From assembly GCA_003230355.1 (NCBI GenBank), contig QIDD01000001.1, positions 1-19,167 of the forward strand: a stretch of 19,167 nt of DNA, read 5' to 3'. The translations under genes were made by a program, and so were the position numbers. Position 1 is the first letter of the stretch; each line of letters begins with the position of its first letter. Below, one piece after another: positions 2,199-19,152 of this stretch. This DNA is from Methanobacteriota archaeon (GTDB lineage Archaea > Hydrothermarchaeota > Hydrothermarchaeia > Hydrothermarchaeales > SZUA-236). The notes below the pieces were generated by a model, which searched no databases, was not told the DNA's origin, and saw only the letters and a list, made by a program, of their open reading frames with translations.

Positions 2199-3287
2199 AT
2201 GTCTGATGATTTTGTGCCGAAGTGGATCGCCTGGGAGGTAACAGGCAGATGCAACCTGAGCTGTATTCACTGCCGGGCGTCTGCGTCTCTGGATGCGGAG
2301 GAGGGTGATTTCACAACAGGTGAGGCGAAGGCCATTCTTGACGATATTGCGAGTTTTTCCAGTCCTGTCATCGTGCTTTCCGGCGGCGAACCATTGCTTC
2401 GAAAAGATATCTGGGAGATAGCAGGGCATGGGACTGGTCTTGGTCTTCGCATGTGCATGGCCACAAACGGAACGCTTGTCACCGACCGTGTGTGCGAGAA
2501 GATAAAAGAAGCAGGGATAAAGATGGTTTCTCTCAGCCTCGACGGGAGCACGCCTGAAATTCATGACAACTTTCGAAACCAGAAAGGAGCGTTCAAAGGC
2601 ACGATTCGCGCGGCAGAGCTGTTTAAAAAACACGGCATCCCCTTTCTCATCAACTCCTCTTTTACCAAGCGCAACCAAGGGGATGTTCCAAATGTGATGA
2701 GGCTTGCAAAGGAGCTGGGCGCCAGGGCTTGGTACATGTTTCTCATCGTGCCAACAGGCCGGGGCAAAGATATCATGAGTGAACTTGTTTCAAAGGAGGA
2801 TTATGAGGAGCTTTTGAAATGGCATTTTGATGTTGAAAAAGATGAAGAGGAGCTTTTGATGCGCCCTACCTGCGCCCCGCAGTACTACAGGGTTTATCGC
2901 CAGGAAGCAAAGCGGCAGGGGATTGATTTCAAACGGCGCAATCTCAGCTTTTCCACAGGCGGCGGCAAAGGATGCATCGCAGGCCAGGTCATCGCGCTCA
3001 TCGACCACAAGGGAAATGTGCAGCCCTGCAGTTATTTTCCGAAGGCCGCGGGGAATGTAAAAGAGCAGAGTTTCAAAGACATCTGGGAGAACTCACCCAT
3101 TCTAAAAGAGCTGCGCGACTTCAAAAGCTACAAGGGCAAGTGCGGCTCCTGCGAGTATCTGCGTGTCTGCGGAGGATGCCGGGCGCGGGCCTATGCAATC
3201 ACCGGCGACTACATGGATGAGGAGCCCTTCTGCAGCTATGTGCCGCTGAAAACAAAGGGGAAGCAGGAATCTCTGGAGAAAATATAA
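2199..3287 (+). CDS. ahbD: AhbD-like radical SAM/SPASM heme synthase
   Basis: A 362-aa radical SAM enzyme. The N-terminus has [11 protein letters not shown] with the SAM-cluster cysteines C18, C22, C25, and a GGEP motif at residues 62-65. C225 lies in a TCAPQYYR segment. A C-terminal SPASM-type region holds C259, C277, C315, C318, C324, C327 and C345, with G-G-C-R-A-R-A-Y and [10 protein letters not shown]. This pattern, including V-P-T-G-R after the barrel, matches AhbD, which oxidatively decarboxylates the two propionates of Fe-coproporphyrin III to give heme b anaerobically. AhbC/NirJ is a related alternative, but the IAWEVT start and the C-terminal motif fit AhbD better. It is first in a block with hemE, hemH and hemY, which supports a role in heme synthesis. 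Confidence 0.82.
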
Positions 3288-3320
3288 AAACACCCCAGCT
3301 CATTTTTCTTTGGAAAGACT

Positions 3321-4343
3321 ATGTTTAACGACTTGTTTCTACGCACATGCCGGCTTGAGGAGACTGAGCGCACGCCTGTCTGGCTTATGCGTCAGGCCGG
3401 CAGGTACATGAAAGAATACTGGGGGATTCGCAGCAAACATTCTTTTCTTGAGATGTGCAAGACACCTGAGATTGCGGCCAGGGTTACAATGCAGCCTATC
3501 GACACCTTTGGATTTGACGCGGCAATCCTATTTTCAGACATTCTCATCCCAGTGGAGGCGATGGGTGTGGACCTAGAATTTGTCGAGGGCCGGGGCCCGG
3601 TTCTCACAACAAAGATCGAGGATATTACTGATATTAATCGGCTTGTTGTGCCTGATCCAGAAGAGGATTTGCCCTTCGTGCTCGACGCCATAAGGCTTCT
3701 TCGAAAACGGCTGAATGTTCCGCTCATCGGTTTTTCAGGCGCGCCCTTCACGCTTGCAAGCTATATAATCGAAGGAGGCGGCTCAAGGAATTATCTAAAG
3801 GCTAAGTCGATGATGTACAACGAGCCCAGGCTTTGGAAAAGTCTGATGGAGAAGATCGCAGACACTGTCACAGATTATCTTAACGCTCAGATCGATGCGG
3901 GCGCGCAGGCGGTTCAGGTCTTTGACAGCTGGGTGGGATGCCTGTCGCCAGAGGATTACAAGCAGTTTGTCCAGCCATATACAAAGCAGGTTTTTGACGG
4001 GCTCAAAGGAGATGTTCCAAGGATACATTTTGGAACCGGGTCAGCCATGCTGCTTGAACATATGCGCAACGCCGGCGGTGACGTAATCGGCTGTGACTGG
4101 CGCATAGGACTTGACGATGCGTGGACGCGCATCGGCTATGACCACGGCATCCAGGGTAATCTTGATCCGATTCTGCTGCACGCGACACCTGAAGTTTTGG
4201 TGGAGCGCATTCGAGGCGTCTTGGATAAGGCTGGGGGGCGGCCTGGACACGTCTTCAACTTGGGCCACGGAATCCTCCCTACAACGCCGGTTGAGAATGT
4301 GAAGGTGCTGGTAGATGCTGTAAAAAAATATAGTTTGAAGTAG
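3321..4343 (+). CDS. hemE: Uroporphyrinogen decarboxylase
   Basis: A 340-aa protein of normal family length. It opens with the signature RTPVWLMRQAGRYM (residues 17-30), whose arginines bind substrate carboxylates. It continues with FSDILIPVEAMG (the catalytic Asp, D73), a GFSGAPFTLASYIIEGGGS block, a FGTGS loop and the C-terminal NLGHGILPTTP. HemE removes four acetate carboxyls from uroporphyrinogen III to give coproporphyrinogen III in the cytosol. It starts 33 bases after the AhbD-like gene, with a weak GGAAAG ribosome site, so the two are likely co-transcribed. HemE is not needed in the siroheme-dependent heme route of most archaea, so its presence beside an AhbD-like gene is notable. Confidence 0.95.
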   Translation: MFNDLFLRTCRLEETERTPVWLMRQAGRYMKEYWGIRSKHSFLEMCKTPEIAARVTMQPIDTFGFDAAILFSDILIPVEAMGVDLEFVEGRGPVLTTKIEDITDINRLVVPDPEEDLPFVLDAIRLLRKRLNVPLIGFSGAPFTLASYIIEGGGSRNYLKAKSMMYNEPRLWKSLMEKIADTVTDYLNAQIDAGAQAVQVFDSWVGCLSPEDYKQFVQPYTKQVFDGLKGDVPRIHFGTGSAMLLEHMRNAGGDVIGCDWRIGLDDAWTRIGYDHGIQGNLDPILLHATPEVLVERIRGVLDKAGGRPGHVFNLGHGILPTTPVENVKVLVDAVKKYSLK

Positions 4344-4453
4344 GAGGGGTCTATCCACTCACATCCGCTCATTGGAAAAAGCCTCTGAGTCTGAAAGGTA
4401 GTTTCATTAAAACACGAGATGAACAGAGTAGTAGCGGCACAAAAAATCAGGCC

Positions 4454-4464
4454 AACATTTATCA
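4454..4464 (+). promoter_or_regulatory. Putative internal promoter before hemH
   Basis: AACATTTATCA lies about 25-30 bases before the hemH ATG at 4487, in a 143-base gap after hemE. A transcript from it would be leaderless, and no Shine-Dalgarno is visible before the ATG, which agrees. hemH and hemY may therefore be transcribed separately from ahbD-hemE. The rest of the gap (4344-4453) shows no recognisable element. Confidence 0.4.
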
Positions 4465-4486
4465 GCTCTGATTTAGAATAAATCGT

Positions 4487-5467
4487 ATGGACGAAACTTC
4501 TAAGGCTGTCATCCTCCTTAACCTCGGCGGGCCGGATTCAACTGAATCTGTGAAGCCTTTTTTATACAACTTGTTCAGTGACCGCGAGATCATCAGACTT
4601 GGACCCTGGTTTTTGCAGAAGCCTTTGGCAAGGCTTATCGCAAGCCGAAGGGCAGGCAAGGCAGAGGAATACTACCGGCAGATCGGCGGCGCCTCACCTC
4701 TTGGCAGGATCACGACTGTTCAGGCTGAGGCGCTTGAAAAAAAGCTGAACCAGCGAGGGGGCAGATTCAGGGTTTATGTAGGGATGAGGTATTGGCATCC
4801 ATTTATCGCTGATGCAGTTAAAGAAATCACAGATAATGGGGTTTCAGAGCTTATTGCGCTACCCCTTTTTCCACAGTATTCCAGGGCTACAACCGGGTCG
4901 TGCTTCAACGAGCTTACAAGGGCGGCCGCAGCCCTTGAGTCAGAGATGAAAATAACCTATGTCCAAAGCTATTATGATCATCCGCTTTATATCAAGGCGC
5001 TTTCTGAAACGATATCGGAAGGACTCTCTAGATTCGCAGATGGCCGGGAGCAGAACGTTTCAATCCTATTCAGCGCTCACGCTCTGCCGCAGAAATTTGT
5101 TGACGATGGCGACCCATATGTGAAACAGGTTAAAGCGACCATTTCAGCGGTCACATGCAGGCTGGGAATCGATTCATGGAGTCTTTCGTTTCAAAGTAGA
5201 AGCGGCCCTGTGAAATGGACTTGTCCAGAGACAAAGGAGACGATAAAGCAGCTTGCCGCAGAGGGTGTGGAAAACCTGCTCATCGTGCCAATCAGCTTTG
5301 TATCTGATCATGTGGAAACGCTCTATGAGATGGACATTCTCTACAAAGAGCTGGGCTCCGGGCTTGGCATGAAAATCGAAAGAGCACCTGCGCTAAATGT
5401 CCTTCCAGTATTTATCAAGGCGCTTGCAGAAATCGTAGTCCAGTCCGAGGCCGGTGGAAAAGATTAA
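4487..5467 (+). CDS. hemH: Ferrochelatase (proto- or coproporphyrin type)
   Basis: A 326-aa ferrochelatase. Motifs in order are ILLNLGGPDS, YRQIGGASPL, LPLFPQYSRATTGS, the catalytic SAHALP (H198), SFQSRSGPVKW followed by P-E-T, and PISFVSDHVETLYEMD with E277. Together these cover the Fe2+ and porphyrin site. The enzyme inserts ferrous iron into a porphyrin. Whether the substrate is protoporphyrin IX or coproporphyrin III (CpfC activity) cannot be read from sequence. The neighbouring AhbD-like enzyme needs Fe-coproporphyrin, which points to the latter. Three scattered cysteines do not make an obvious 2Fe-2S motif. No membrane anchor is seen, so it is a soluble bacterial-like form. Confidence 0.93.
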   Translation: MDETSKAVILLNLGGPDSTESVKPFLYNLFSDREIIRLGPWFLQKPLARLIASRRAGKAEEYYRQIGGASPLGRITTVQAEALEKKLNQRGGRFRVYVGMRYWHPFIADAVKEITDNGVSELIALPLFPQYSRATTGSCFNELTRAAAALESEMKITYVQSYYDHPLYIKALSETISEGLSRFADGREQNVSILFSAHALPQKFVDDGDPYVKQVKATISAVTCRLGIDSWSLSFQSRSGPVKWTCPETKETIKQLAAEGVENLLIVPISFVSDHVETLYEMDILYKELGSGLGMKIERAPALNVLPVFIKALAEIVVQSEAGGKD

Positions 5468-5487
5468 TATTGCTGTGCATCGATAAA

Positions 5488-6894
5488 ATGGCCATGGTTA
5501 AAGTTGTCGTACTCGGTGGCGGGATTTCAGGACTAGCAACTGCATACGCTATACAGGAGATGGCTAAAGAGGCCGGTCTGAAAATCGAGCTGACTGTGAT
5601 TGAAAAAGAGAAAAGCCTCGGCGGGAAGATACAGTCCTATCGTGAAGATGGTTTTCTCTACGAAGGCGGACCATCCGGTTTTTTGGACAGCAAGCCTGAA
5701 ACTCTTAAGCTCGCCTCAGATGTGGGGCTTCAGGTTCTTCCCAGCACGGCTGCTGCGAAGAAGAGGTTTATCTACTTCGGAGGGAGGCTTCGCCGCGTGC
5801 CTGAGGGGCCGGCCGAATTTATCCGCTCTGATATCATGACCATTCCAGGAAAGCTGCGAGTTCTGCTTGAGCCCTTTACAAAACCTTCGAAGTCTGAGGA
5901 TGAGACAGTTGCAGAATTCGGCAGGCGCCACCTTGGGCGGGAGGCCCAGGAGCGTCTCATAAGCGCAATGATCGTTGGGATCTTTGCCGGAAGCTCGGAG
6001 AAGTTGAGCTTGAAGAGCAGTTTTCCAGTGATGGCAGAACTTGAATCCGAAGGAGGGGGCAGCCTGATAAAAGCTATGTTCAAACGCATGAAGGATGCGA
6101 AAAAAGCAGGTAAGACCAAAATGTCGGCTTCTCCATCTGGCGGCCTAACATCTTTTGAAGGGGGCATGGCAGACATTATCCATAGTATTGAGCAGGGTTT
6201 GGACGCAGGATTTGCTACTGGTAAAAAGGTGTCCTCCCTTAAAATCAGTGGGAGCGGCGGATATGAAATCTATTTAGAAGGTGAAAAGACGCCCATTGAG
6301 GCGGACGTTGTTGTAGCAGCCCTTCCAGCCTATGCCTCGGCAGAAATACTTGGCGGGCTTGACAAAGGATTTGAGGAAGTGCTTACCAAAATACCCTACT
6401 CCCCTGCTGCGGTGGTCTGCCTGGGATATCGGGAGGAGGACTTGCCAAACCGGCTTGAGGGATACGGTTTTTTAATCCCGCCGGTGGAGGGGCGAAATAT
6501 TCTTGGTTGCCGTTGGGATTCATCCACATTTGAGGGCCGCGCGCCGCCTGGGCACATGCTTTTGGAGGTCATTGTGGGCGGGGCGATTCAGCCTGAACTA
6601 GCAGCGCTTGAACAGGACTTGGTTTTAAGTGTTGTGAAAGAGGAGCTGAAGGCAATACTGGATATTGAAAAAGAGCCGGTCTTCTCCAAGGTCATATGGC
6701 ATAAGAAAGCTATCCCGCAGTATGTTGTCGGCCACAGCAAAGTACTCAAAAAATTGGATTCTGTAATTGAGAATTATCCCGGACTTTTTATCACAGGAAA
6801 CGCCTACAGGGGAATAGGCATAAATGACTGCACGAAAAACGCGCTCCTCACTTCTGGGAAAGTGATTGACTTTCTGAAGGAAAAGAGGTTATGA
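5488..6894 (+). CDS. hemY: FAD-dependent porphyrinogen oxidase (HemY/CgoX type)
   Basis: About 468 aa with an N-terminal FAD-binding Rossmann motif VVVLGGGISGLATAYA, the E-K-x-x-x-L-G-G-K-I-Q-S segment, E-G-G-P-S-G-F, and a C-terminal FAD motif GLFITGNAYRGIGINDC. This is the HemY-type oxidase that removes six electrons from protoporphyrinogen IX or, as CgoX, from coproporphyrinogen III. Known HemY/CgoX enzymes use O2 or other acceptors, and the acceptor here is unknown. The start is uncertain: ATG at 5488 and at 5494 are both plausible, neither with a clear ribosome site, and an in-frame TTG at 5470 adds six unlikely residues. It follows hemH closely, and its stop overlaps the next start (ATGA). 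Confidence 0.9.
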   Translation: MAMVKVVVLGGGISGLATAYAIQEMAKEAGLKIELTVIEKEKSLGGKIQSYREDGFLYEGGPSGFLDSKPETLKLASDVGLQVLPSTAAAKKRFIYFGGRLRRVPEGPAEFIRSDIMTIPGKLRVLLEPFTKPSKSEDETVAEFGRRHLGREAQERLISAMIVGIFAGSSEKLSLKSSFPVMAELESEGGGSLIKAMFKRMKDAKKAGKTKMSASPSGGLTSFEGGMADIIHSIEQGLDAGFATGKKVSSLKISGSGGYEIYLEGEKTPIEADVVVAALPAYASAEILGGLDKGFEEVLTKIPYSPAAVVCLGYREEDLPNRLEGYGFLIPPVEGRNILGCRWDSSTFEGRAPPGHMLLEVIVGGAIQPELAALEQDLVLSVVKEELKAILDIEKEPVFSKVIWHKKAIPQYVVGHSKVLKKLDSVIENYPGLFITGNAYRGIGINDCTKNALLTSGKVIDFLKEKRL

Positions 6895-7577
6895 TTAGGG
6901 CCCTGGCCTGCGATATTGACGGAACAATTACTGATGAACGCCGCCGGCTCCATCCTGAGGCTGTTAGGCTGCTGCAGCGAATCGAGGAGATGGGTGTGCC
7001 AGTTGTTCTTGCAACTGGAAACATTCTCTGCGTAACTGAGGCGGCGAAAACATTCCTTGGAACAACAGGGCCTGTGATTGCTGAAAACGGAGGCGTGATC
7101 AAGGCACCCGGAGAATCTGAGCCAAGATATTTCTGTGATGTAAAATCCGGTGAGATCGGCCGGGCATACGAGTATCTGTCAAGCCTTTTGGATGTGCGCC
7201 TCACACATGGTTCCGAGCTGCGAAGAACTGAAATCGCAATCTATCGTGACCATCCGGTTGAGGAGGTGAAATCTGTGCTGGCAAAGTTTAACGTGCAAAT
7301 CGTTGACACAAAGTTCGCAATCCATATAATGGACCCTCAAGTGAATAAGGGCCGCGCGCTACAACAGGTGGCTGATCTCATGGGCATCGGTATTCGAAAT
7401 TTTGCGGCGATTGGCGACAGTGAAAATGACCGGGAAATGCTTGAACTCGCAGGCCTGGGAATCGCGGTTGGAGACAGCCGGCTTGAAAACTCGGCAGACC
7501 TTCTGATCACTGAAGGATTCGCAGAAGGCGGTGTGAATGCGCTTAATAATGTTATCGGCAGGCTGGAAAAAGTATAA
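6891..7577 (+). CDS. Archaeal-type phosphoglycolate phosphatase (HAD family)
   Basis: A 228-aa HAD-superfamily phosphatase. The nucleophile motif is CDIDGT (D8, D10), the second motif is the T-G-N of VVLATGN, a lysine lies in V-N-K-G-R-A-L, and the last motif is GDSENDREM. Size and pattern match the archaeal phosphoglycolate phosphatases, which have a C2-type cap and are related to sucrose-phosphatase/Cof enzymes. The reaction is dephosphorylation of 2-phosphoglycolate, Mg2+-dependent, in the cytosol. It overlaps hemY by four bases (ATGA), so the two are translationally coupled although no metabolic link to heme is known. Substrate in vivo could be another small phosphate ester. Confidence 0.85.
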   Translation: MIRALACDIDGTITDERRRLHPEAVRLLQRIEEMGVPVVLATGNILCVTEAAKTFLGTTGPVIAENGGVIKAPGESEPRYFCDVKSGEIGRAYEYLSSLLDVRLTHGSELRRTEIAIYRDHPVEEVKSVLAKFNVQIVDTKFAIHIMDPQVNKGRALQQVADLMGIGIRNFAAIGDSENDREMLELAGLGIAVGDSRLENSADLLITEGFAEGGVNALNNVIGRLEKV

Positions 7578-7580
7578 AAA
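7573..7580 (+). promoter_or_regulatory. Putative TATA box of the receiver-domain gene
   Basis: TATAAAAA begins inside the stop region of the phosphatase gene and ends 20 bases before the GTG at 7601. Transcription would begin at or next to that GTG, giving a leaderless message. This favours GTG 7601 over the TTG at 7616. Confidence 0.5.
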
Positions 7581-7600
7581 CCGGGGGATAAAATAGTAAG

Positions 7601-7993
7601 GTGGGGTCAACAAAATTGAAAACAATAATGGTCGTAGACGACGATGAAGAACTGAGATCGGTTATTAAAACCATTCTAACCAGAGTGGGTCACATGGTTG
7701 TGGAAGCGGAGTCAGGGGAACGATGCATTGAACTGCTCAAAAGCGGTGAAAGACCTGATCTCATATTGCTCGACGTAATGATGCCTGATATGGATGGATG
7801 GGAGACCTGCAAAATAATCAAAGAAGACGAGGACCTAAAAGACATAACAGTTGCAATGCTCACACTCAAATCACAGGAACACGACAAGATAGAGAGTCTC
7901 GGCCTTGCCACTGCAGACTGGCATATTGACAAGCCAATTAATAAAACACGCTTTGTCAAAACCGTGAAATGGCTCCTCGGCGAGCGGGTTTAA
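7601..7993 (+). CDS. Stand-alone CheY-like response regulator receiver
   Basis: A 130-aa single-domain receiver. Acidic pocket residues D13-D15 lie in VVDDDEE, the phospho-acceptor is D58 in LILLDVMMPDMDGW, the switch threonine is T88 in AMLTLKS, and the conserved lysine K111 is in HIDKPI. There is no output domain, so it probably signals by protein contact. Start choice: GTG 7601 fits a leaderless transcript from the TATA box at 7573, while TTG 7616 would give the common MKTIMVVDDD start. No histidine kinase lies in the window. Its 3' end overlaps the oppositely oriented Roadblock-type gene by four bases. Confidence 0.9.
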   Translation: MGSTKLKTIMVVDDDEELRSVIKTILTRVGHMVVEAESGERCIELLKSGERPDLILLDVMMPDMDGWETCKIIKEDEDLKDITVAMLTLKSQEHDKIESLGLATADWHIDKPINKTRFVKTVKWLLGERV

Positions 7994-8715
7994 ACCGATT
8001 CAGAAGATTCCTTATCCGCGTCTTTAATATGGATTATCTCGTCAATCGCCCTGTCAGCGATGTTCCCGCCTGCTGTATCCTTCAGCGTTTCAAGCATGGA
8101 CAGCAGTATATCTTCAAGTCCTGCCACAAGGTCATCATAAGATACCAGCTTTGAGTTCGATTTTAGTCTGTCCATTTCAGGCAGCCCGTCATCTTGAAAT
8201 TCAACGGATTTCAATAGAAGGGGATGGTCCCCACGCACCTCATGGAATTTGCTGTTAAACATGGAAGCAGCTTGAGAGCCGAATATCTCGGAGAGCTTGT
8301 CGGCTGGAACACTGAAAAGCATGGTATAGCGCTCGATTATCTGCGCCACCTTAAGGGGATCGATTTTTGCAATCCTTGGAGGAAGACGCTCATGCTTCAC
8401 CTTTGAAGTTGCTGCCCGTGACACGAGCTTTAAGAGCGGGAGGTTGATGTTTTTATCGGTAACTACAACAAGGAGCCGGTTGTTCACAGTCATGACCACA
8501 AGCTTCATATCCTCGGCGTCAACGATTATTCGCTCAAACTCGCGGGTGGACTTCATCACATCAGAAACATAGTTTAGAAGCTTCGAAATCTTACCTGCCT
8601 TTTCAGACAGGTCCTCAGGCAGATCCTCAGCGGCGACTCCTCCCTTTTCATCGATTACAAAGGAACCCCTGATTCCGCTCATAATATTTTTTAGCTCCTC
8701 AAGGGTTGCCTTCAA
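7990..8715 (-). CDS. Roadblock/LC7-like protein with unrecognised C-terminal domain (paralog 1)
   Basis: About 241 aa. The N-terminal ~105 residues look like a Roadblock/LC7 fold: LEELKNIMSGIRGSFVIDE with the alternating strand pattern, then V-V-V-T-D-K-N-I-N-L-P-L-L-K-L-V. The C-terminal ~125 residues form a helical region (L-F-S ... I-F-G-S-Q-A-A ... D-D-G-L-P-E ... G-L-E-D-I-L-L-S-M-L-E) that I do not recognise. The same architecture recurs in the gene ending at 9158. GTG at 8724 is possible, but GGAGG lies only one base before it. The TTG at 8715 has that site ten bases upstream and aligns with the MKEILLEL start of the paralog, so I prefer it. Roadblock proteins dimerise and often regulate small GTPases; none is nearby. 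Confidence 0.7.
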   Translation of the reverse strand: MKATLEELKNIMSGIRGSFVIDEKGGVAAEDLPEDLSEKAGKISKLLNYVSDVMKSTREFERIIVDAEDMKLVVMTVNNRLLVVVTDKNINLPLLKLVSRAATSKVKHERLPPRIAKIDPLKVAQIIERYTMLFSVPADKLSEIFGSQAASMFNSKFHEVRGDHPLLLKSVEFQDDGLPEMDRLKSNSKLVSYDDLVAGLEDILLSMLETLKDTAGGNIADRAIDEIIHIKDADKESSESV

Positions 8716-8740
8716 AATTATCACGCCTCCAAAGATACTC

Positions 8741-8750
8741 TAAATTTATC
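8741..8750 (-). promoter_or_regulatory. Putative TATA box of Roadblock paralog 1
   Basis: On the minus strand GATAAATTTA lies about 25-35 bases before the preferred TTG start at 8715. Another AT-rich element at about 8847-8863 (TTTATTTAAATTTT on the plus strand) could also serve. The 198-base gap 8725-8922 holds nothing else I recognise. Confidence 0.35.
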
Positions 8751-8922
8751 CGCCACAGTTATTAAAGCTTTGTCCAAACAAGAAGACCAATATCTTCTCT
8801 CAAACTTAGGTTCCACGAACAGATATAATGCCTGAGAGGTATTAATAGTTTATTTAAATTTTCTTTGATGGGCTTATGTTTCAAACTGCTTTTTCTCAGG
8901 ATAAGATTATGGTTATGTTCAT

Positions 8923-9108
8923 TTATTTATTTCTTCTGAGGAACCCCAAGACGACCAAGATAATGCCTGCAATCAGAGAATAGTTAGTGATATTGTTGAG
9001 AGTTGTCATTTCCTGAGGGCCAAAATTAAGTGCCGCCCCAACCCCTATAACGACCACTTTGACGACAATCGAAAGAAGAATTAATATTACACCGAACAAC
9101 AAGCTCAT
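8923..9108 (-). CDS. Small two-helix membrane protein
   Basis: A 61-aa protein with two hydrophobic helices (about residues 3-26 and 42-56) joined by a short polar loop (NFGPQEMTTLNN), ending in R-R-N-K, which suggests a cytoplasmic C-terminus. A GAGG lies four bases before the ATG, and a TATA-like element follows upstream, which supports it being real despite its size. No family is recognised. It sits between the two Roadblock paralogs, so a role as a membrane tether or partner is possible but unproven. Confidence 0.6.
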   Translation of the reverse strand: MSLLFGVILILLSIVVKVVVIGVGAALNFGPQEMTTLNNITNYSLIAGIILVVLGFLRRNK

Positions 9109-9145
9109 AGAACCTCAAACTCTCCTCAATATAGATTTTCTGCCC

Positions 9146-9155
9146 ATATAAATAA
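9146..9155 (-). promoter_or_regulatory. Putative TATA box of the 61-aa membrane protein gene
   Basis: On the minus strand TTATTTATAT lies about 40 bases before the ATG at 9108, immediately after the end of Roadblock paralog 2. It predicts a leader of about 17 bases that contains the GAGG site at 9113-9116. Confidence 0.45.
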
Positions 9156-9157
9156 TT

Positions 9158-9883
9158 CTAGCTCACTTGCCGTCCTCTGATCTTCTCTATTTCTTCAAGC
9201 GCCCGCTCCCGTTGTTTTGGGCCTGCCACACGCTGGACGGATTCGAGCATGGATTCAAGCAGCCCCTCCAGCCCAGATGTGAGATCCTCCTTTGACTTTA
9301 TGTTTTCAGCGTTTTTTCGCAGGACTGCGATATCTGGTTTTCCGTCTGGCCCGAAGGAAAGCTCTGAAAAAAGCGTGGCATGGCTGTTTCGAACTGCTAC
9401 CGAGCCCTCGTCGAAGTGTGTTGCTGACTTGGGTCCGATGATGTTTGCAAGTCTTTTTGCAGCCTCAGAAAAGAGCTGGTCGTAGAATGAGACAAGTTCC
9501 TCTCCGAAGGCTTGATCTTTCTTCTGCGCAGGAGCAGGGGTTTTGGCTTTTTTCAGCTTTACACTGGCCATGTTTGACATGAGCTGAAACAGGGGCGGGT
9601 TAATCGTTTTTTCAGCAACAACTACAAGTACATTATCTCCCGTAGGAATAGATATGAACTTGGCGTTTTCAGAGTCAACGGTGAGCTTGTCAACAGAGCG
9701 CGTGGCCTTGATTACATTTGTTACGTGGTGAAGGCTTTTAGACACCTTGATGGCAGGATCGCCTAAAAGCTCCGGCACATCTTCAGCGATGATTTCACCC
9801 TCCTCATTAAGTACAAAGGAGCCTACAATCCCGCTCATGCTTTCCCTGAGCTCTAAGAGGATTTCCTTCATTTTCCATTCCAT
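9158..9883 (-). CDS. Roadblock/LC7-like protein with unrecognised C-terminal domain (paralog 2)
   Basis: A 241-aa paralog of the gene ending at 7990. Matching blocks are ESMSGIVGSFVLNEEGEIIAEDVPE, T-R-S-V-D-K-L-T-V-D-S-E, V-L-V-V-V-A-E-K-T-I-N-P-P-L-F-Q-L, and in the C-terminus I-I-G-P-K-S-A, F-G-P-D-G-K-P-D and G-L-E-G-L-L-E-S-M-L-E-S. A proline/alanine/lysine linker (KKAKTPAPAQKK) separates the two domains. ATG at 9883 is used here, but the ATG at 9871 (MKEILLEL) aligns with the paralog start and may be the true one. It starts 12 bases after the 97-codon membrane gene, so the two are probably co-transcribed. Confidence 0.7.
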   Translation of the reverse strand: MEWKMKEILLELRESMSGIVGSFVLNEEGEIIAEDVPELLGDPAIKVSKSLHHVTNVIKATRSVDKLTVDSENAKFISIPTGDNVLVVVAEKTINPPLFQLMSNMASVKLKKAKTPAPAQKKDQAFGEELVSFYDQLFSEAAKRLANIIGPKSATHFDEGSVAVRNSHATLFSELSFGPDGKPDIAVLRKNAENIKSKEDLTSGLEGLLESMLESVQRVAGPKQRERALEEIEKIRGRQVS

Positions 9884-9895
9884 CCTAGGCTTGGT

Positions 9896-10183
9896 TTATT
9901 TCACCTTGTCATATTGGAGTTTGAGTCCATTGACCAGAAACAGCGCTGAGAGGATCATAAAGAATAGAACCGCTTTCAATGCATCTCCGTCGGCAAGTTC
10001 ATACGCCCCTCCTGCAAGGGCAGCTACAAAGAGCAGTATAACACCAAGTCCCACGTGCTTCCATACATTGGCAAGCTCTGAACCTGCTAGAGCAGACCTA
10101 AGCTCATTCGCATAATAGGCGCTTACCGCAGTAACAATCAAAACAACCGTTCCCAAAACATAGGTTATTACATCAACTACCAT
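9896..10183 (-). CDS. Small membrane protein, three or four helices
   Basis: About 95 aa from ATG at 10183, with GGAGG seven bases upstream (10191-10195); a TTG at 10189 is less likely because it falls within three bases of that site. Hydrophobic segments lie near residues 3-22, 46-62 and 70-85, between short charged loops, ending in Q-Y-D-K-V-K. No family is recognised. It directly precedes Roadblock paralog 2 in the same direction, echoing the pairing of the other small membrane protein with paralog 1. Confidence 0.65.
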   Translation of the reverse strand: MVVDVITYVLGTVVLIVTAVSAYYANELRSALAGSELANVWKHVGLGVILLFVAALAGGAYELADGDALKAVLFFMILSALFLVNGLKLQYDKVK

Positions 10184-10221
10184 CCACAAACCTCCATCGT
10201 TTTATACCATCTGCCAGAGAT

Positions 10222-10237
10222 GATTAATAAATCTTTT
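10222..10237 (-). promoter_or_regulatory. Putative TATA box before the 95-aa membrane gene
   Basis: AAAAGATTTATTAATC on the minus strand is a good TATA element about 45 bases before the ATG at 10183. It would start transcription near 10203, just upstream of the GGAGG site, and could drive the membrane gene together with Roadblock paralog 2. Confidence 0.5.
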
Positions 10238-10251
10238 CTTAAAAGTCACCT

Positions 10252-11130
10252 TCACCCCTCGCTAACAGATATCTTCTTTTCAAAGGGAAAGCCTAAGTCT
10301 GATTCAAAAACAGAATCAATAGTTGTTTCCACAAGTTCGCTAGTACCTTTTTTCAAAGGCTTCACATAGACGTCGATTTCAAAGAGCACAGACTCAGAGA
10401 GCCGCGACGGAGTGATAAAAAGGTCAAGCTCTTTAAAGCGCTTCTTCTTTTTAAGCGCCCTGAGAATCTCACGCTTAAAGCTGCGGGACTGCTTGCTAAG
10501 CTCACGTTCTGAGGGCAAGTTGAAACTCTGAAGAACTACACTGGTAAATTCATCATCTGGGTCTTTGAGTCCTAATTTTTTAAGCAGCGCCGCCCGGTCA
10601 ACAACAGGGTCTTCAGTCTTCTCCTCAGACGTACTGGGTTCTTCCTTTTCGATTTTTGCTTCGCTCTCTCTTTTTGCAGCCTCTCTCTCTGTCTCCTCCT
10701 CTTTTCTTTGCTCCTCCAGCTCTTGTTTCTTCACCCTGCCAGCCTCAATTCCGGCCATGATTTCATCGACAGGCACGAGAAGCGCCGCGCTGTTCTCCTC
10801 AACAGCATATTGAAGCTGGATCTCATTAAACTCGTAGAGATCCACAATCCCCTCACACTCCCAGGCACTGCGCACAGCCTCCAAACCTTGAGCGCCCACA
10901 ACAGTCTCAAGACCAACATACCCCGCGCCCACAAGAGATCCCGAGCACAAAAGCAGATACCCATCCTCAAGCCCCGCGTCTATTTCAACTGTTACACGGA
11001 TGTAACCGGTGAAAAGCCTCGCTGCAAGCTCACTCAAAATCTCGTCAAGAGAAGTGTTCTTTGTGGACAAGAGCGCCCGGCCCTCATCAGACCTGGTAAA
11101 CCTGTAAGACGCTCCCTTGGGAAGTCTCAT
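10252..11130 (-). CDS. DUF2226/PATAN-like protein with a charged linker
   Basis: A 292-aa soluble protein. Residues ~25-115 contain a pattern like PATAN/DUF4388 or archaeal DUF2226 domains: L-F-T-G-Y-I-R-V, G-Y-L-L-L-C-S-G-S-L-V-G-A-G-Y, then an A-W-E-C-E-G segment. Residues ~130-175 are a highly charged E/K/R linker, likely a long helix or disordered. The C-terminal ~110 residues begin RAALLKKLGLKDPDDEF and are alpha/beta with many lysines. These names are by resemblance only. Such proteins accompany Roadblock or receiver modules in archaea and bacteria. The ATG at 11130 has GGAGGT about seven bases upstream. It starts 17 bases after the stand-alone Roadblock gene, so the two form an operon. 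Confidence 0.65.
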   Translation of the reverse strand: MRLPKGASYRFTRSDEGRALLSTKNTSLDEILSELAARLFTGYIRVTVEIDAGLEDGYLLLCSGSLVGAGYVGLETVVGAQGLEAVRSAWECEGIVDLYEFNEIQLQYAVEENSAALLVPVDEIMAGIEAGRVKKQELEEQRKEEETEREAAKRESEAKIEKEEPSTSEEKTEDPVVDRAALLKKLGLKDPDDEFTSVVLQSFNLPSERELSKQSRSFKREILRALKKKKRFKELDLFITPSRLSESVLFEIDVYVKPLKKGTSELVETTIDSVFESDLGFPFEKKISVSEG

Positions 11131-11147
11131 GCCCCGGACCTCCCTCC

Positions 11148-11510
11148 TCAGACAACTTCAGAAAGCTTGGACGCCAGATCCATCGCTTCTTTACTAATCA
11201 AATCAACGCTCACATTGGATGCGGTGGAAAGCCCTACATACACAGGCCCGCTATTTATTGAAATAATCTTATAATCTGAGCCTTCGACAACGATCTTTTC
11301 AAGCCGCCCAAGTTTAAGCTCACTGTCAAGCTGCACCCCAACGCCAGCAGAGAAAATTGTAATCGCACCCAGCTCCTCTTCATTTACATTACCAGAAACA
11401 TCAGATGCAAGAATCGCTCCGTCTGACGAGGTTATGACGCATCCTTCCACGCCAGAAATCTTTCTGAAATCGCCCACAAACCGTTTGAGTAGTATATCCA
11501 GCTCTGCCAC
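11148..11510 (-). CDS. Roadblock/LC7 domain protein, stand-alone
   Basis: A 120-aa protein that is a single Roadblock/LC7 domain: an N-terminal helix, then V-E-G-C-V-I-T-S-S-D-G-A-I-L-A-S-D-V, a central helix, K-I-V-V-E-G-S-D-Y-K-I-I-S-I-N, and a last helix. It resembles MglB-type proteins, which form dimers that regulate Ras-like GTPases at the membrane. No such GTPase is in the window. The start is GTG at 11510 with GGAGG six bases upstream, and a strong TATA box precedes it. It leads the minus-strand cluster and is probably co-transcribed with the 292-aa protein. Confidence 0.85.
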   Translation of the reverse strand: MAELDILLKRFVGDFRKISGVEGCVITSSDGAILASDVSGNVNEEELGAITIFSAGVGVQLDSELKLGRLEKIVVEGSDYKIISINSGPVYVGLSTASNVSVDLISKEAMDLASKLSEVV

Positions 11511-16692: not shown

Positions 16693-17265
16693 ATGCTTAA
16701 ACGCAGCGCCGCAATTTATACTGGAGGTTTTCTATTTGGACTGGTGTCCTCGGCACTTATAATCGCGTTCTATCCTTCGCTTTACGAAGCATTTCTAGAG
16801 TTTCTGCGACGCCGAGTTGAAACCCAGAGCCGTGTAATCGAAAACTTCACGCTCATGATTATTGTAAATAACCTGCTAGCCGCCGGCATCGCATCCTTCG
16901 GCGGAGTAGGGGTTTCAAAGCTTGTAAACATATTCAACCCAAAGGCTGCAAAGAACAAGGCGCTGCTCTACTCTCTTCCAGTGGGAATACTCTTTGTAAA
17001 CGGCGAGATACTTGGGCTTCTCGGTGCACTCTATATAGAGCAGGCCTCGCGCTTTCTCTCTGGAATATTTCCACACGGATTTTTTGAAATTCCTGCGATC
17101 ATCCTTTCAGGCGCCATTGGACTAGGGATTTCAGAGGAGTCAAAGAATTTTGAAAATGACTTTCAGACCGATTTAAACAACCATGCAAAGCAAAATCTCA
17201 AAAGATTTACGATCGTAGTTCTATTGATAATAATTGGAGGAATGCTTGAGGGCGGCGCACTTTAA
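16693..17265 (+). CDS. SpoIIM-like (DUF95) membrane protein
   Basis: A 190-aa integral membrane protein with about five hydrophobic segments (near residues 10-27, 53-70, 92-113, 133-148, 172-188). The segment HGFFEIPAIILSGAIGLGI is the signature of the SpoIIM/DUF95 family, which is widespread in archaea despite being named after a Bacillus sporulation protein. Its function in archaea is not known. The start is ATG 16693, probably leaderless. Its stop overlaps the end of the convergent HdrB-like gene by four bases. Confidence 0.82.
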   Translation: MLKRSAAIYTGGFLFGLVSSALIIAFYPSLYEAFLEFLRRRVETQSRVIENFTLMIIVNNLLAAGIASFGGVGVSKLVNIFNPKAAKNKALLYSLPVGILFVNGEILGLLGALYIEQASRFLSGIFPHGFFEIPAIILSGAIGLGISEESKNFENDFQTDLNNHAKQNLKRFTIVVLLIIIGGMLEGGAL

Positions 17266-18152
17266 GTTGAAACTGGGAGAGACTCAACGTATTTCAAAAC
17301 CTTCTTTGTGGATGTGAGGTTTTTTTGCAGGCCGAGCTTTTTAGGTGAGATTCCAAGGGCAAGACCGATAATCTGTGTGAAATAGATGATAGGCACGCCC
17401 AGCTCTGTTTCAAACTTCTTCTGCATCCGTTTCTGCTTAAAATCAAGGTTCAAATGACAGAGCGGACACATGGTGACAACCGCATCGGCCCCGGCATCCT
17501 TGGCGCCTTTGAGTATATCATAGCTGAGTCTGAGGGCAACATCCTCCTGAGTTAGAAGCACTGATGAGCCACAGCAGGCAGCAGTAAACCGGTCAAAAGG
17601 CACGACCTCAGCCCCTAAAACCTCAAGCACCTGATTCATAGAGGTGGGATTTTCAGCCGAATCAATCGCAATCTCAGGCGGACGAAGCGCGAGACAGCCG
17701 TGATAAGGCGCGAGACGAAGACCTGTAAGCCTGCGACGAACCAGTTTCTCAAGTGCCTCAGGCCCAATGTCATGAAGAACCACATCCAGCAGATGGCGCA
17801 CCTTGACCGTGCCCTTCACCTGATGTCCGGTGTCACGTATAAGACTGTTGATCTCATCCTTCTTAGCTGGGTTCTCGCTAAAAAGAATCGCTGCGTGCGC
17901 CAGGTTGTTATAGCACTCATTGCATATTGTGAGGATGTCAAGACCCATTTCCTCGGCAATCGCAATATTTCGAGCTTGAAGCGCAAGTGTGAGATCATGG
18001 CCGTGGGACGGACTAGACGATGCTCCGCAGCAGTTCCAATCAGGCATGTCAACAAGCTCAAGCCCCAGCTCCTTTGCAGTGGCAAGCGTTGATACCTGAT
18101 ACTCAAGCCCGGAGCCAAAGATAGTGCACCCCGGATAATAGGCGTATTTCAT
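17262..18152 (-). CDS. HdrB-type CCG protein (second of a tandem pair)
   Basis: A 296-aa protein with both CCG cysteine motifs: C9, C41-C42, C77, C80 (C-x31-CC-x34-CxxC) and C153, C193-C194, C229, C232 (C-x39-CC-x34-CxxC). This matches heterodisulfide reductase subunit B, where the motifs bind non-cubane 4Fe-4S clusters that cleave CoM-S-S-CoB or another disulfide. The starts MKYAYYPGC and D-W-N-C-C-G are typical of HdrB. It is downstream of a paralog in the same orientation, separated by 31 bases, and no HdrA or HdrC is in the window. TfrB/SdhE-like or other CCG disulfide or electron-transfer enzymes are alternatives, so the substrate is not assignable from sequence. Confidence 0.87.
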   Translation of the reverse strand: MKYAYYPGCTIFGSGLEYQVSTLATAKELGLELVDMPDWNCCGASSSPSHGHDLTLALQARNIAIAEEMGLDILTICNECYNNLAHAAILFSENPAKKDEINSLIRDTGHQVKGTVKVRHLLDVVLHDIGPEALEKLVRRRLTGLRLAPYHGCLALRPPEIAIDSAENPTSMNQVLEVLGAEVVPFDRFTAACCGSSVLLTQEDVALRLSYDILKGAKDAGADAVVTMCPLCHLNLDFKQKRMQKKFETELGVPIIYFTQIIGLALGISPKKLGLQKNLTSTKKVLKYVESLPVST

Positions 18153-18183
18153 TATTAGACCATTAACAGGACGGGCTGGGCCA

Positions 18184-19152
18184 CTATCTCAGCTCAAAGA
18201 CAAGTCTCTTGATTCGCCCCTCTTCTTCTAGAGATATGCTCACGCCTGGGACCTCGATCTCACCTGTAAACTCAATTCCCAAAAGATCCAGTATCCTCCT
18301 CGGCGAAGTAATGTTTTTATCAAGGCCCAGGGTTGCAGGATCCAGGCCGAGGCCTAGACCCACTAATTGTGGAAAGTATAGGATTGGAATATCGATTGAG
18401 ATTCCGAATGTCTCCTCCACAAGCTGCTGCTTGGCGTCAAGGTTCATATGACACATTGGGCATGGAACGATTATGCAGTTCGCACCAGCTCTTTTTGCAC
18501 CGAGGAGGAGGTTTTTGATAAGCTTAAGCGCCACGTCTTCCTTGGGAAGGATGAGCGCGCCTCCGCAGCAGGCAGTCTTATAATCTGCATAGTCAACAAC
18601 CTCTGCTCCCAGGGCCTTTGCAATATTGTCCATGGTCTGCGGGTTTTCAACCCGGTCAAAATTGGCGACGTCTGGAGGCCTGACAACTAGGCAGCCGTAA
18701 TAAGGTGCAATCCTTAGCTTTGATAGGTCGATTTTCCTATTTTCACTTAGACGTTCATATCCTACATCGTTTGCCACAACGTCAAGTGCGTGCTTAACCT
18801 CGGTTTTACCCTTGAACTCCAGGTCTGCGTCTGCAAGAACAGAGTTAACAAGACGACGCTCATGGTCATTTTCACGCAGCTGCTTGTTCACAGTCGCAAG
18901 ATTGTGGAAGCACTCACTGCAGGGCGCGATAATCGTGTCCACATCAGATTCCTCGGCAATCGCCAGGTTACGTGCCGGCAGCGCAAGGGAGAGGGTGTGA
19001 TTTATCGCGTGGCCTGCTGTTGCGCCGCAGCAGTTCCAATCTTCAATGTCAGGGGTGTCGATTCCCAGGGCTTCGAACATGGCCTTCGAGGCGATATTGT
19101 ACTCTTTTGCTGAGGAAACAAGGGAGCAACCAGGGTAGTAAGCATACTTCAT
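18184..19152 (-). CDS. HdrB-type CCG protein (first of a tandem pair)
   Basis: A 322-aa protein with the same architecture as its downstream paralog: C9, C41-C42, C78 and C81 in the first CCG motif, and a second motif built on P-Y-Y-G-C, T-A-C-C-G-G and V-P-C-P-M-C. It has a C-terminal extension of about 25 residues (E-F-T-G-E-I-E-V-P-G-V-S-I-S), which its neighbour lacks. The ATG at 19152 has GAGG at the window's right edge, and the operon may extend beyond it, possibly to HdrC or HdrA. Both copies keep the full cysteine set, so neither looks degenerate. Confidence 0.87.
   Translation of the reverse strand: MKYAYYPGCSLVSSAKEYNIASKAMFEALGIDTPDIEDWNCCGATAGHAINHTLSLALPARNLAIAEESDVDTIIAPCSECFHNLATVNKQLRENDHERRLVNSVLADADLEFKGKTEVKHALDVVANDVGYERLSENRKIDLSKLRIAPYYGCLVVRPPDVANFDRVENPQTMDNIAKALGAEVVDYADYKTACCGGALILPKEDVALKLIKNLLLGAKRAGANCIIVPCPMCHMNLDAKQQLVEETFGISIDIPILYFPQLVGLGLGLDPATLGLDKNITSPRRILDLLGIEFTGEIEVPGVSISLEEEGRIKRLVFELR

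What the first reader, a model, noticed from the sequence alone, without database searches (positions are those of the whole stretch)
2199..6894. Possible hybrid heme route: HemE, HemY and HemH with AhbD as last enzyme
The sequence shows ahbD-like, hemE, hemH and hemY together. Known routes pair AhbD with the siroheme-dependent enzymes AhbA/B/C, and pair HemE-CgoX-CpfC with HemQ. HemE, HemY and HemH would make Fe-coproporphyrin III, which is exactly the known AhbD substrate. An AhbD-terminated coproporphyrin route is therefore the simplest reading. I do not know of a described archaeal example, but I cannot search.
Basis: partly seen in the sequence, partly recalled or inferred. Interest (0 to 1): 0.8.

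Follow-up and report, generated by a model that had tools for sequence, protein, structure and literature searches.

The report
Bacterial-type heme operon in an archaeon
A deep-sea archaeon carries a four-gene heme-making cassette, also found in Geobacter-like and Nitrospirota bacteria, that appears to make heme's vinyl groups with an AhbD-type radical enzyme instead of the usual ones; the gene set is clear, but the order of its last steps is still unproven.

Summary
In detail: window 2199-6894 encodes, on one strand, an AhbD-type radical SAM/SPASM protein, HemE, HemH and HemY. The window's genus-mate is Ca. Hydrothermarchaeota BMS3Abin16. Of 61 archaeal genomes, 10 have all four genes with this AhbD type; no genome with this AhbD type, or with HemE above its cut-off, was found to have AhbA/B or AhbC, and none with HemE, HemH and HemY has ChdC. 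No HemN and no HemF turned up. Near the 80 closest homologues (79 bacterial loci) HemE is present in 73; 25 of the bacterial genomes, searched whole, gave no HemN over cut-off, no ChdC and no HemF. So this protein very probably makes the heme vinyls. An AhbD-ended coproporphyrin route is already in print for 'some organisms', and one Hydrothermarchaeota genome was scored as having a complete coproporphyrin pathway.

New: HemE-linked AhbD is its own clade within AhbD with fixed differences (Tyr179 in 120/120; canonical AhbD His 120/120; AhbC Cys 9/9), and its HemY/HemH partners carry protoporphyrin-type residues. Two orders remain: coproheme then AhbD (favoured, 0.55), or the AhbD-like enzyme first, replacing HemN (0.3).

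The parts
2199..3287 (+). AhbD-type radical SAM/SPASM protein, HemE-linked subfamily (362 aa); C18/C22/C25 radical SAM cluster, full 8-Cys SPASM motif C225-C345; Tyr179
3321..4343 (+). hemE, uroporphyrinogen decarboxylase (340 aa)
4487..5467 (+). hemH, ferrochelatase (326 aa), protoporphyrin-type contact residues
5494..6894 (+). hemY, FAD porphyrinogen oxidase (ORF listed from TTG 5470; ATG 5494 more likely), residues R95-Y329-L332
6891..7577 (+). phosphoglycolate phosphatase, overlaps hemY by 4 bp; perhaps co-transcribed, not a heme enzyme
   Evidence: same order in G001

Best explanation
The four genes are the post-uroporphyrinogen half of a heme b pathway that part of the Hydrothermarchaeota line took over from bacteria in place of the archaeal siroheme (Ahb) route. 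HemE makes coproporphyrinogen III. HemY oxidises it and HemH inserts iron to give coproheme. The HemE-linked AhbD then decarboxylates the 2- and 4-propionates to vinyls with radical SAM chemistry, giving heme b without O2 or peroxide at that step. Shown by computation: gene content, clustering, failure to find the alternative vinyl-forming enzymes, place on the AhbD side of the tree, single clade of the archaeal HemE inside bacterial diversity. Inferred: all activities, above all the order of steps, the direction of transfer, and the electron acceptor of HemY in an anaerobe.
For: 10 of 61 genomes have HemE, HemH, HemY and the HemE-linked AhbD; none of the 15 genomes with HemE over cut-off and none of the 11 with HemE-linked AhbD has AhbA/B over cut-off or an AhbC-like protein of 337 bits or more (in the 23 order/class genomes HemE vs AhbA/B overlap 0, Fisher p 9e-5, not corrected for kinship). 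ChdC in 3 of 61, none with HemE+HemH+HemY. HemN_C: 12 weak places in 10 of 61 genomes, 12 of 12 frames without CX3CX2C. HemF 0 of 39. Near relatives: HemE in 73 of 80 loci, all four in 18 of 80, one of these the archaeal genus-mate; HemN over cut-off 0 of 25 genomes, ChdC 0 of 25. The protein nests on the AhbD side (100/99), away from 9 AhbC rows, with the full SPASM motif of studied AhbD in 28 of 28 (motif from PMC10452713, passages). Position 179 holds Tyr, His or Cys in HemE-linked AhbD, canonical AhbD and AhbC, residues that commonly ligate heme iron (recalled), as expected if all three bind an iron porphyrin. M. barkeri AhbD hardly converts metal-free coproporphyrin (PMC11306076, passages).
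Against: HemY of these sets has the PgoX residues in 29 of 29, and HemH lacks the coproporphyrin-type Arg30 and Tyr125 contacts in 49 of 49. Window HemH scores 221 bits to human PpfC and 144 to B. subtilis CpfC, whereas a ChdC-linked archaeal HemH scores 81 and 161. The radical SAM protein stays below the NCBI AhbD cut-off, sits on a long stem (0.78) and lacks three residues invariant in 120 canonical AhbD (R109, H179, E196). G002 and G015 have HemE/H/Y but no AhbD was found; G016 has HemE and AhbD but no HemH or HemY over cut-off. The Ahb route was not searched genome-wide in the bacteria; early hem genes (HemA-D, HemL), HemG, HemJ and CgoN were not searched genome-wide anywhere. Over all 61 genomes the HemE/AhbA-B exclusion is weak (p 0.05).
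Confidence: 0.55

Rival explanations
1. Protoporphyrin order: the HemE-linked AhbD acts early, turning coproporphyrinogen III into protoporphyrinogen IX in place of HemN; HemY (a PgoX) and HemH (a PpfC) then finish heme by the classical order.
For: PgoX residues in 29 of 29 HemY and PpfC-like residues in the HemH (residue meaning from PMC10740692 and PMC7340540, passages). No HemN, HemF or ChdC found in these genomes. Fixed changes from canonical AhbD on predicted strands (R109 to Ile/Met, H179 to Tyr). In G044 the canonical AhbD goes with a HemY that groups with B. subtilis CgoX (100/98) and has T95/V332, as if the two AhbD types sat in two different orders (one such genome only).
Against: No SPASM enzyme is known to act on a porphyrinogen (recalled). 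G044 HemH also lacks Arg30 and Tyr125, so the HemH signature does not track the order. Tyr179 could ligate heme iron. The protein lies on the AhbD side and keeps the full SPASM motif. PgoX/CgoX labels rest largely on phylogeny (PMC10740692, passages).
Confidence: 0.3
2. The genes are a partial or redundant set: the real vinyl-forming enzyme (HemN, ChdC or the Ahb route) lies in an unassembled part of this 81%-complete genome.
For: The genome is 80.87% complete; two kin with HemE/H/Y have no AhbD found.
Against: The same absences hold across the 12 kin that share HemE, 10 of them listed at 90% completeness or more, and HemN, ChdC and HemF are likewise not found in 25 bacterial genomes.
Confidence: 0.07
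3. The radical SAM protein is not a heme enzyme but a neighbour by chance, e.g. a peptide-modifying SPASM maturase.
For: SPASM family; best solved-structure matches are PqqE, BlsE and SkfB.
Against: TIGR04545 is the best family by over 110 bits; the AhbD side of the tree is supported; HemE is near it in 73 of 80 loci.
Confidence: 0.03
4. A bacterial contig misbinned into an archaeal genome.
For: The nearest named AhbD outside the group are bacterial, about 70-72% identical.
Against: The same contig carries a CdhE gene, an archaeal-type phosphoglycolate phosphatase and an archaeal DUF2226 gene; the block is syntenic in G001 and the four genes are together in G006; 13 archaeal HemE are one clade, 97/95.
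Confidence: 0.02

Closest known systems
AhbD heme synthase of the siroheme pathway (Methanosarcina, Desulfovibrio; TIGR04545)
   Same: Same side of the tree, same radical SAM and full SPASM cysteine motifs, 45-46% identity to canonical AhbD of G050/G044
   Different: 442-456 bits in three members scanned, under the 500-bit cut-off; R109, H179 and E196 replaced; linked to HemE/H/Y, not to AhbA/B/C
Coproporphyrin-dependent pathway (HemE, CgoX, CpfC, ChdC)
   Same: Same first three gene families
   Different: No ChdC found; HemY and HemH carry protoporphyrin-type residues
Protoporphyrin-dependent pathway (HemE, HemN/HemF, PgoX, PpfC)
   Same: HemY/HemH residues of the PgoX/PpfC type
   Different: No HemN over cut-off and no HemF found; AhbD-type enzyme instead
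AhbD-ended coproporphyrin route mentioned in reviews (PMC7242693, one section read; PMC10548856, PMC8587615 and PMC10144233, passages)
   Same: Gene content as found here
   Different: The parts that I saw name no archaeal example and no separate AhbD subfamily
Haloarchaeal ChdC (PitA) and Ahb routes (PMC5746218, passages)
   Same: Archaeal; AhbD serves anaerobic heme synthesis in Haloferax
   Different: There AhbD is assigned to the Ahb route; Halorussus carries HemH, a HemY-type oxidase and HemE on a plasmid

Membership tests
AhbD (heme b synthase) | Best NCBIfam family is TIGR04545 | tested here: met
   446.6 bits against 331 for the next
AhbD (heme b synthase) | Above NCBI equivalog cut-off of 500 bits | tested here: not met
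   446.6; Geobacter homologue 455.8, G006 442.3, canonical G050 566.9, G044 551.6
AhbD (heme b synthase) | Groups with canonical AhbD, apart from AhbC | tested here: met
   55-row tree: 38-row side 100/99 that also holds two unassigned rows (G028, G005); 9 AhbC and 8 unassigned rows on the other side; stem of the HemE-linked clade 0.78
AhbD (heme b synthase) | CX3CX2C plus SPASM motif | tested here: met
   28 of 28 HemE-linked rows match the full 8-Cys motif
[quoted passage not shown]
   no assay; candidate metal-ligand position differs
Coproporphyrin-dependent pathway | HemY of CgoX type (small residues at MxPgoX 95 and 332) | tested here: not met
   R and L in 29 of 29 HemY, G044 excepted (T, V)
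Coproporphyrin-dependent pathway | HemH with LmCpfC propionate contacts (Arg29, Arg45, Tyr46, Ser53, Tyr124) | tested here: inconclusive
   Tyr46 and Ser53 equivalents kept in 49 of 49; Arg29 and Tyr124 equivalents in 0 of 49; Arg45 in 12 of 49; G044 also lacks Arg29 and Tyr124 equivalents
Coproporphyrin-dependent pathway | ChdC present | tested here: not met
Protoporphyrin-dependent pathway | HemN or HemF present | tested here: not met
   archaea: HemN_C hits are not radical SAM frames, HemF 0 of 14; bacteria: HemN over cut-off 0 of 25, HemF 0 of 25, 6 of 6 weaker proteins scanned are HemW
Siroheme (Ahb) pathway | AhbA/B and AhbC present | tested here: not met
   not found in the window's genome or in genomes with HemE over cut-off; AhbC judged at 337 bits or more, as only G050 passes the curated 650; bacteria not searched genome-wide

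The most novel reading that the evidence does not exclude
The HemE-linked AhbD is a coproporphyrinogen III dehydrogenase: an AhbD-derived SPASM enzyme that has replaced HemN, so that these bacteria and archaea make heme in the protoporphyrin order without HemN or HemF. The two AhbD types would then mark two different pathway orders, and the His/Tyr swap at position 179 would mark the switch between iron-bound and metal-free substrates.
Probability: 0.3. Interest if true: 0.75.

Novelty: new variant of a known kind. Interest (0 to 1): 0.5.

Why it matters
In the 25 bacterial genomes searched (Geobacter-type, Nitrospirota, Desulfobulbaceae, actinobacterial and others; some such groups are very rich in cytochromes, recalled) none of the three known vinyl-forming heme enzymes HemN, HemF and ChdC was found. 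Whether the HemE-linked AhbD works on coproheme or on coproporphyrinogen decides how heme is made there and bears on where the protoporphyrin route came from, and it can be tested in genetically tractable Geobacter. Hydrothermarchaeota show two late heme routes replacing each other inside one archaeal order. The His/Cys/Tyr position is a concrete candidate for the metal ligand that PMC11306076 inferred but could not locate.

Tried and rejected
Rejected: SPASM peptide maturase or NirJ/AhbC (scores, tree). Bacterial contamination (archaeal neighbours, synteny, HemE clade). HemN hidden in kin: all 12 frames with weak HemN_C hits lack CX3CX2C. HemW mistaken for HemN in bacteria: 6 of 6 proteins scanned pass the HemW cut-off (four of the 21 hits plus two neighbours of ahbD).

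Led nowhere or limited: the first tree was wrong because minus-strand loci were read on the wrong strand; redone. HemG and HemJ were looked for only by eye among the commonest neighbours of ahbD in bacterial loci, and none was recognised. The AlphaFold model (pLDDT 79, poor at 184-189 and over much of 312-347) gives strands only, so I could not measure distances. The 120 HemE-linked and 120 canonical rows are the top-listed hits, not random samples; grouping is by which search listed them. Dropped rows: G010 HemH and G018 HemY are fragments and were left out of the residue counts.
Full report
What is there. The window (a whole 19,167-base contig of an 81%-complete genome) carries on the + strand an AhbD-type radical SAM/SPASM gene, hemE, hemH, hemY and a phosphoglycolate phosphatase gene with short or overlapping gaps. 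The same order occurs in G001, whose contig of 13,820 bases equals in length BDTI01000069.1 of archaeon BMS3Abin16, a Ca. Hydrothermarchaeota genome of group MBGE-D (PMC6759336, passages). G006, another family of the order, has AhbD-HemE-HemH-HemY together. In family f2 (G003, G013) HemH-HemY lie in one place, HemE and AhbD elsewhere.

Distribution in archaea. I searched 61 genomes (own plus 60 relatives) for each gene. Over the cut-offs: HemE in 15, HemH in 15, HemY in 13. Ten have all four with the AhbD variant, which scores 430-465 bits: G000, G001, G003, G006, G010, G012, G013, G014, G017, G018 (in G010 the HemH and in G018 the HemY are in pieces). G002 and G015 have HemE/H/Y but no AhbD found; G016 has HemE and AhbD but neither HemH nor HemY over cut-off. 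AhbA/B (PF17805) is over the cut-off in 11 genomes. AhbC-like proteins of 337 bits or more are in 9; only one of them, G050, passes the curated cut-off of 650, so that line is mine. None of these genomes has HemE over the cut-off, HemY over the cut-off or the AhbD variant, and none of the AhbA/B genomes has HemH over the cut-off. In the 23 genomes of the same order and class the tally HemE against AhbA/B is 0 both, 13 HemE only, 8 AhbA/B only, 2 neither (Fisher p 9e-5; 0.0013 with the AhbD variant instead of HemE; over all 61 genomes 0.05 and 0.19; none corrected for kinship). G006 and G011 are listed in one family, yet G006 has the new set and G011 (62% complete, no AhbD found) has AhbA/B and AhbC. 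ChdC is in 3 of 61 (G024, G027, G042); G042 has HemE, HemH and ChdC but no HemY over cut-off. HemN_C gave 12 weak places in 10 of 61 genomes (19-27 bits, 4 genomes over the cut-off), among them six of the kin with HemE; none of the 12 frames has the radical SAM motif CX3CX2C. HemF is in 0 of 39 genomes (14 archaeal, 25 bacterial).

Distribution in bacteria. With flanks of up to 10 kb, often cut by contig ends, HemE is found in 73 of 80, HemH in 42, HemY in 19, all four in 18; AhbA/B, ChdC and SirC in none, and one weak AhbC-type hit (64 bits, L140). For 25 of these genomes I searched the whole genome: HemN over cut-off in 0 of 25 (21 have one weaker match of 94-185 bits), ChdC in 0 of 25, HemF in 0 of 25; the completeness of these genomes is not told, and the Ahb genes were not searched there. 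Six HemN-like proteins scanned all pass the HemW (heme chaperone) cut-off, and such a gene lies upstream of ahbD in 15 of the 79 bacterial loci, often directly. So in these genomes this radical SAM protein is the only candidate that I found for making the vinyl groups.

What the radical SAM protein is. In a 55-row tree the HemE-linked proteins (10 archaeal, 18 bacterial) form one clade (100/100, stem 0.78) within the AhbD side; 9 AhbC rows lie on the other side with 8 unassigned rows; the AhbD side also contains two unassigned long rows. All 28 have the complete eight-cysteine SPASM motif described for AhbD of methanogens and sulfate reducers (PMC10452713, passages). Against this, the score stays under NCBI's AhbD cut-off of 500 in the window, G006 and a Geobacter member (446.6, 442.3, 455.8), whereas canonical G050 and G044 score 566.9 and 551.6. 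Comparing 120 HemE-linked with 120 canonical proteins (top hits) shows fixed differences: position 179 is Tyr 120/120 against His 120/120, and Cys in 9 of 9 AhbC; 109 is Ile/Met against Arg 120/120; 196 is Leu 120/120 against Glu 120/120. Positions 109 and 179 lie on predicted strands (109-113, 177-181), which I take for strands of the radical SAM barrel. His, Cys and Tyr are common iron ligands of hemes (recalled). PMC11306076 (passages) infers an electron-donating ligand near the metal in M. barkeri AhbD and states that docking found none; by cysteine spacing the His would be about residue 178 there (inference).

Origin. The 13 archaeal HemE of this group are one clade (97/95) next to HemE of G044 and inside the bacterial HemE sampled, which fits one transfer from bacteria; the AhbD tree does not resolve the archaeal members as one clade. 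G044 is probably the 'Euryarchaeota archaeon' whose heme b synthase lies on a contig of the same length, 15,741 bases.

Order of steps. Two orders fit the gene content. For the coproporphyrin order: place among AhbD, the SPASM motif, the poor activity of M. barkeri AhbD with metal-free coproporphyrin, and a possible iron ligand at 179. For the protoporphyrin order: PMC10740692 (passages) states that R95, F329 and L332 (M. xanthus numbering) are strictly conserved in protoporphyrinogen oxidases and small in coproporphyrinogen oxidases, except that position 329 can be bulky in the latter in Nitrospirota, Chloroflexota and others. HemY of the sets here have R, F or Y, and L in 29 of 29 (11 archaeal, including G002 and G015 where no AhbD was found, and 18 bacterial). 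HemH (11 archaeal, 38 bacterial) have Leu/Met, Phe/Leu and Ser/Cys/Ala/Gly/Val where B. subtilis CpfC has Tyr13, Arg30 and Tyr125, while Tyr47 and Ser54 are kept (contacts from PMC7340540, passages, shifted by one residue). G044 is a contrast: canonical AhbD, HemY grouping with B. subtilis CgoX (100/98) with T95 and V332; but its HemH lacks Arg30 and Tyr125 as well, so the HemH residues do not decide. I keep the coproporphyrin order as more likely, at 0.55 against 0.3.

What is already in print. Bryant et al. [quoted passage not shown] PMC10548856 (passages): ahbD is colocalised with hemY/hemH/hemQ or ahbA/B/C. PMC10144233 (passages): ahbD in many Gram-positive genomes perhaps does this step. 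PMC11459464 (passages): the coproporphyrin pathway was complete in one Ca. Hydrothermarchaeota genome by automatic annotation. Storbeck et al. 2010 (PMC3004389, passages): among 59 archaea only two Thermoplasma species and Picrophilus had hemE and hemH, route unclear. Ten full-text searches showed me no paper on the HemE-linked AhbD subfamily or its residue differences; I read passages of some of the papers listed, most subscription journals are not in that library, and the Dailey 2015 and 2017 papers were not held.

Loose ends. HemY is described as oxygen-dependent (PMC10965808, passage), yet Hydrothermarchaeota are described as anaerobes (PMC6759336, passages); the acceptor is unknown. Early hem genes were not searched.

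Noticed in passing
G027:C5 (L226, HemE 6406-7416, HemH 7442-8293; ChdC 8320-8790): A 0.8-Mb archaeon has HemE (under its cut-off), HemH and ChdC side by side and no HemY found; its HemH is CpfC-like. It resembles the unexplained Thermoplasma/Picrophilus gene set of Storbeck 2010.
   Followed up: partly
G042: L228 8204-10765 and C5:80179-83104: HemH lies next to a distant AhbD-like radical SAM/SPASM gene (31% to the window protein), while ChdC and HemE lie together on another contig.
   Followed up: no
G044: L225 and L224 10207-11262: Distant archaeon with HemE-HemH-HemY cluster, CgoX-type HemY and canonical AhbD; no AhbA/B, AhbC or ChdC found: the cleanest AhbD-ended coproporphyrin candidate.
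   Followed up: partly
AhbD family, window residue 179: His in canonical AhbD, Cys in AhbC, Tyr in HemE-linked AhbD, each invariant in the rows compared: candidate metal-ligand position for the family.
   Followed up: partly
L238 5998-10759 (Halorussus pelagicus plasmid): Haloarchaeal plasmid annotated with hemH, a protoporphyrinogen oxidase (hemG in the record, HemY-type length) and hemE.
   Followed up: no
L223 1749-4227 (G013): ORFs that look by eye like heme o synthase and a heme-copper oxidase subunit lie a few kb from HemY-HemH, suggesting oxygen use in family f2.
   Followed up: no
bacterial loci such as L194 841-2028, L212 8770-9918: A HemW-type gene lies upstream of the HemE-linked ahbD in 15 of 79 bacterial loci (the two named were scanned).
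   Followed up: partly
window 7990-11510: Two unknown proteins of about 240 aa that look alike by eye flank a small protein; a DUF2226 protein and a roadblock-like protein (by eye) follow; homologues of four of these genes recur in G001.
   Followed up: no
window 17262-19152: Two tandem HdrB-like cysteine-rich proteins (identified by eye, not scanned).
   Followed up: no
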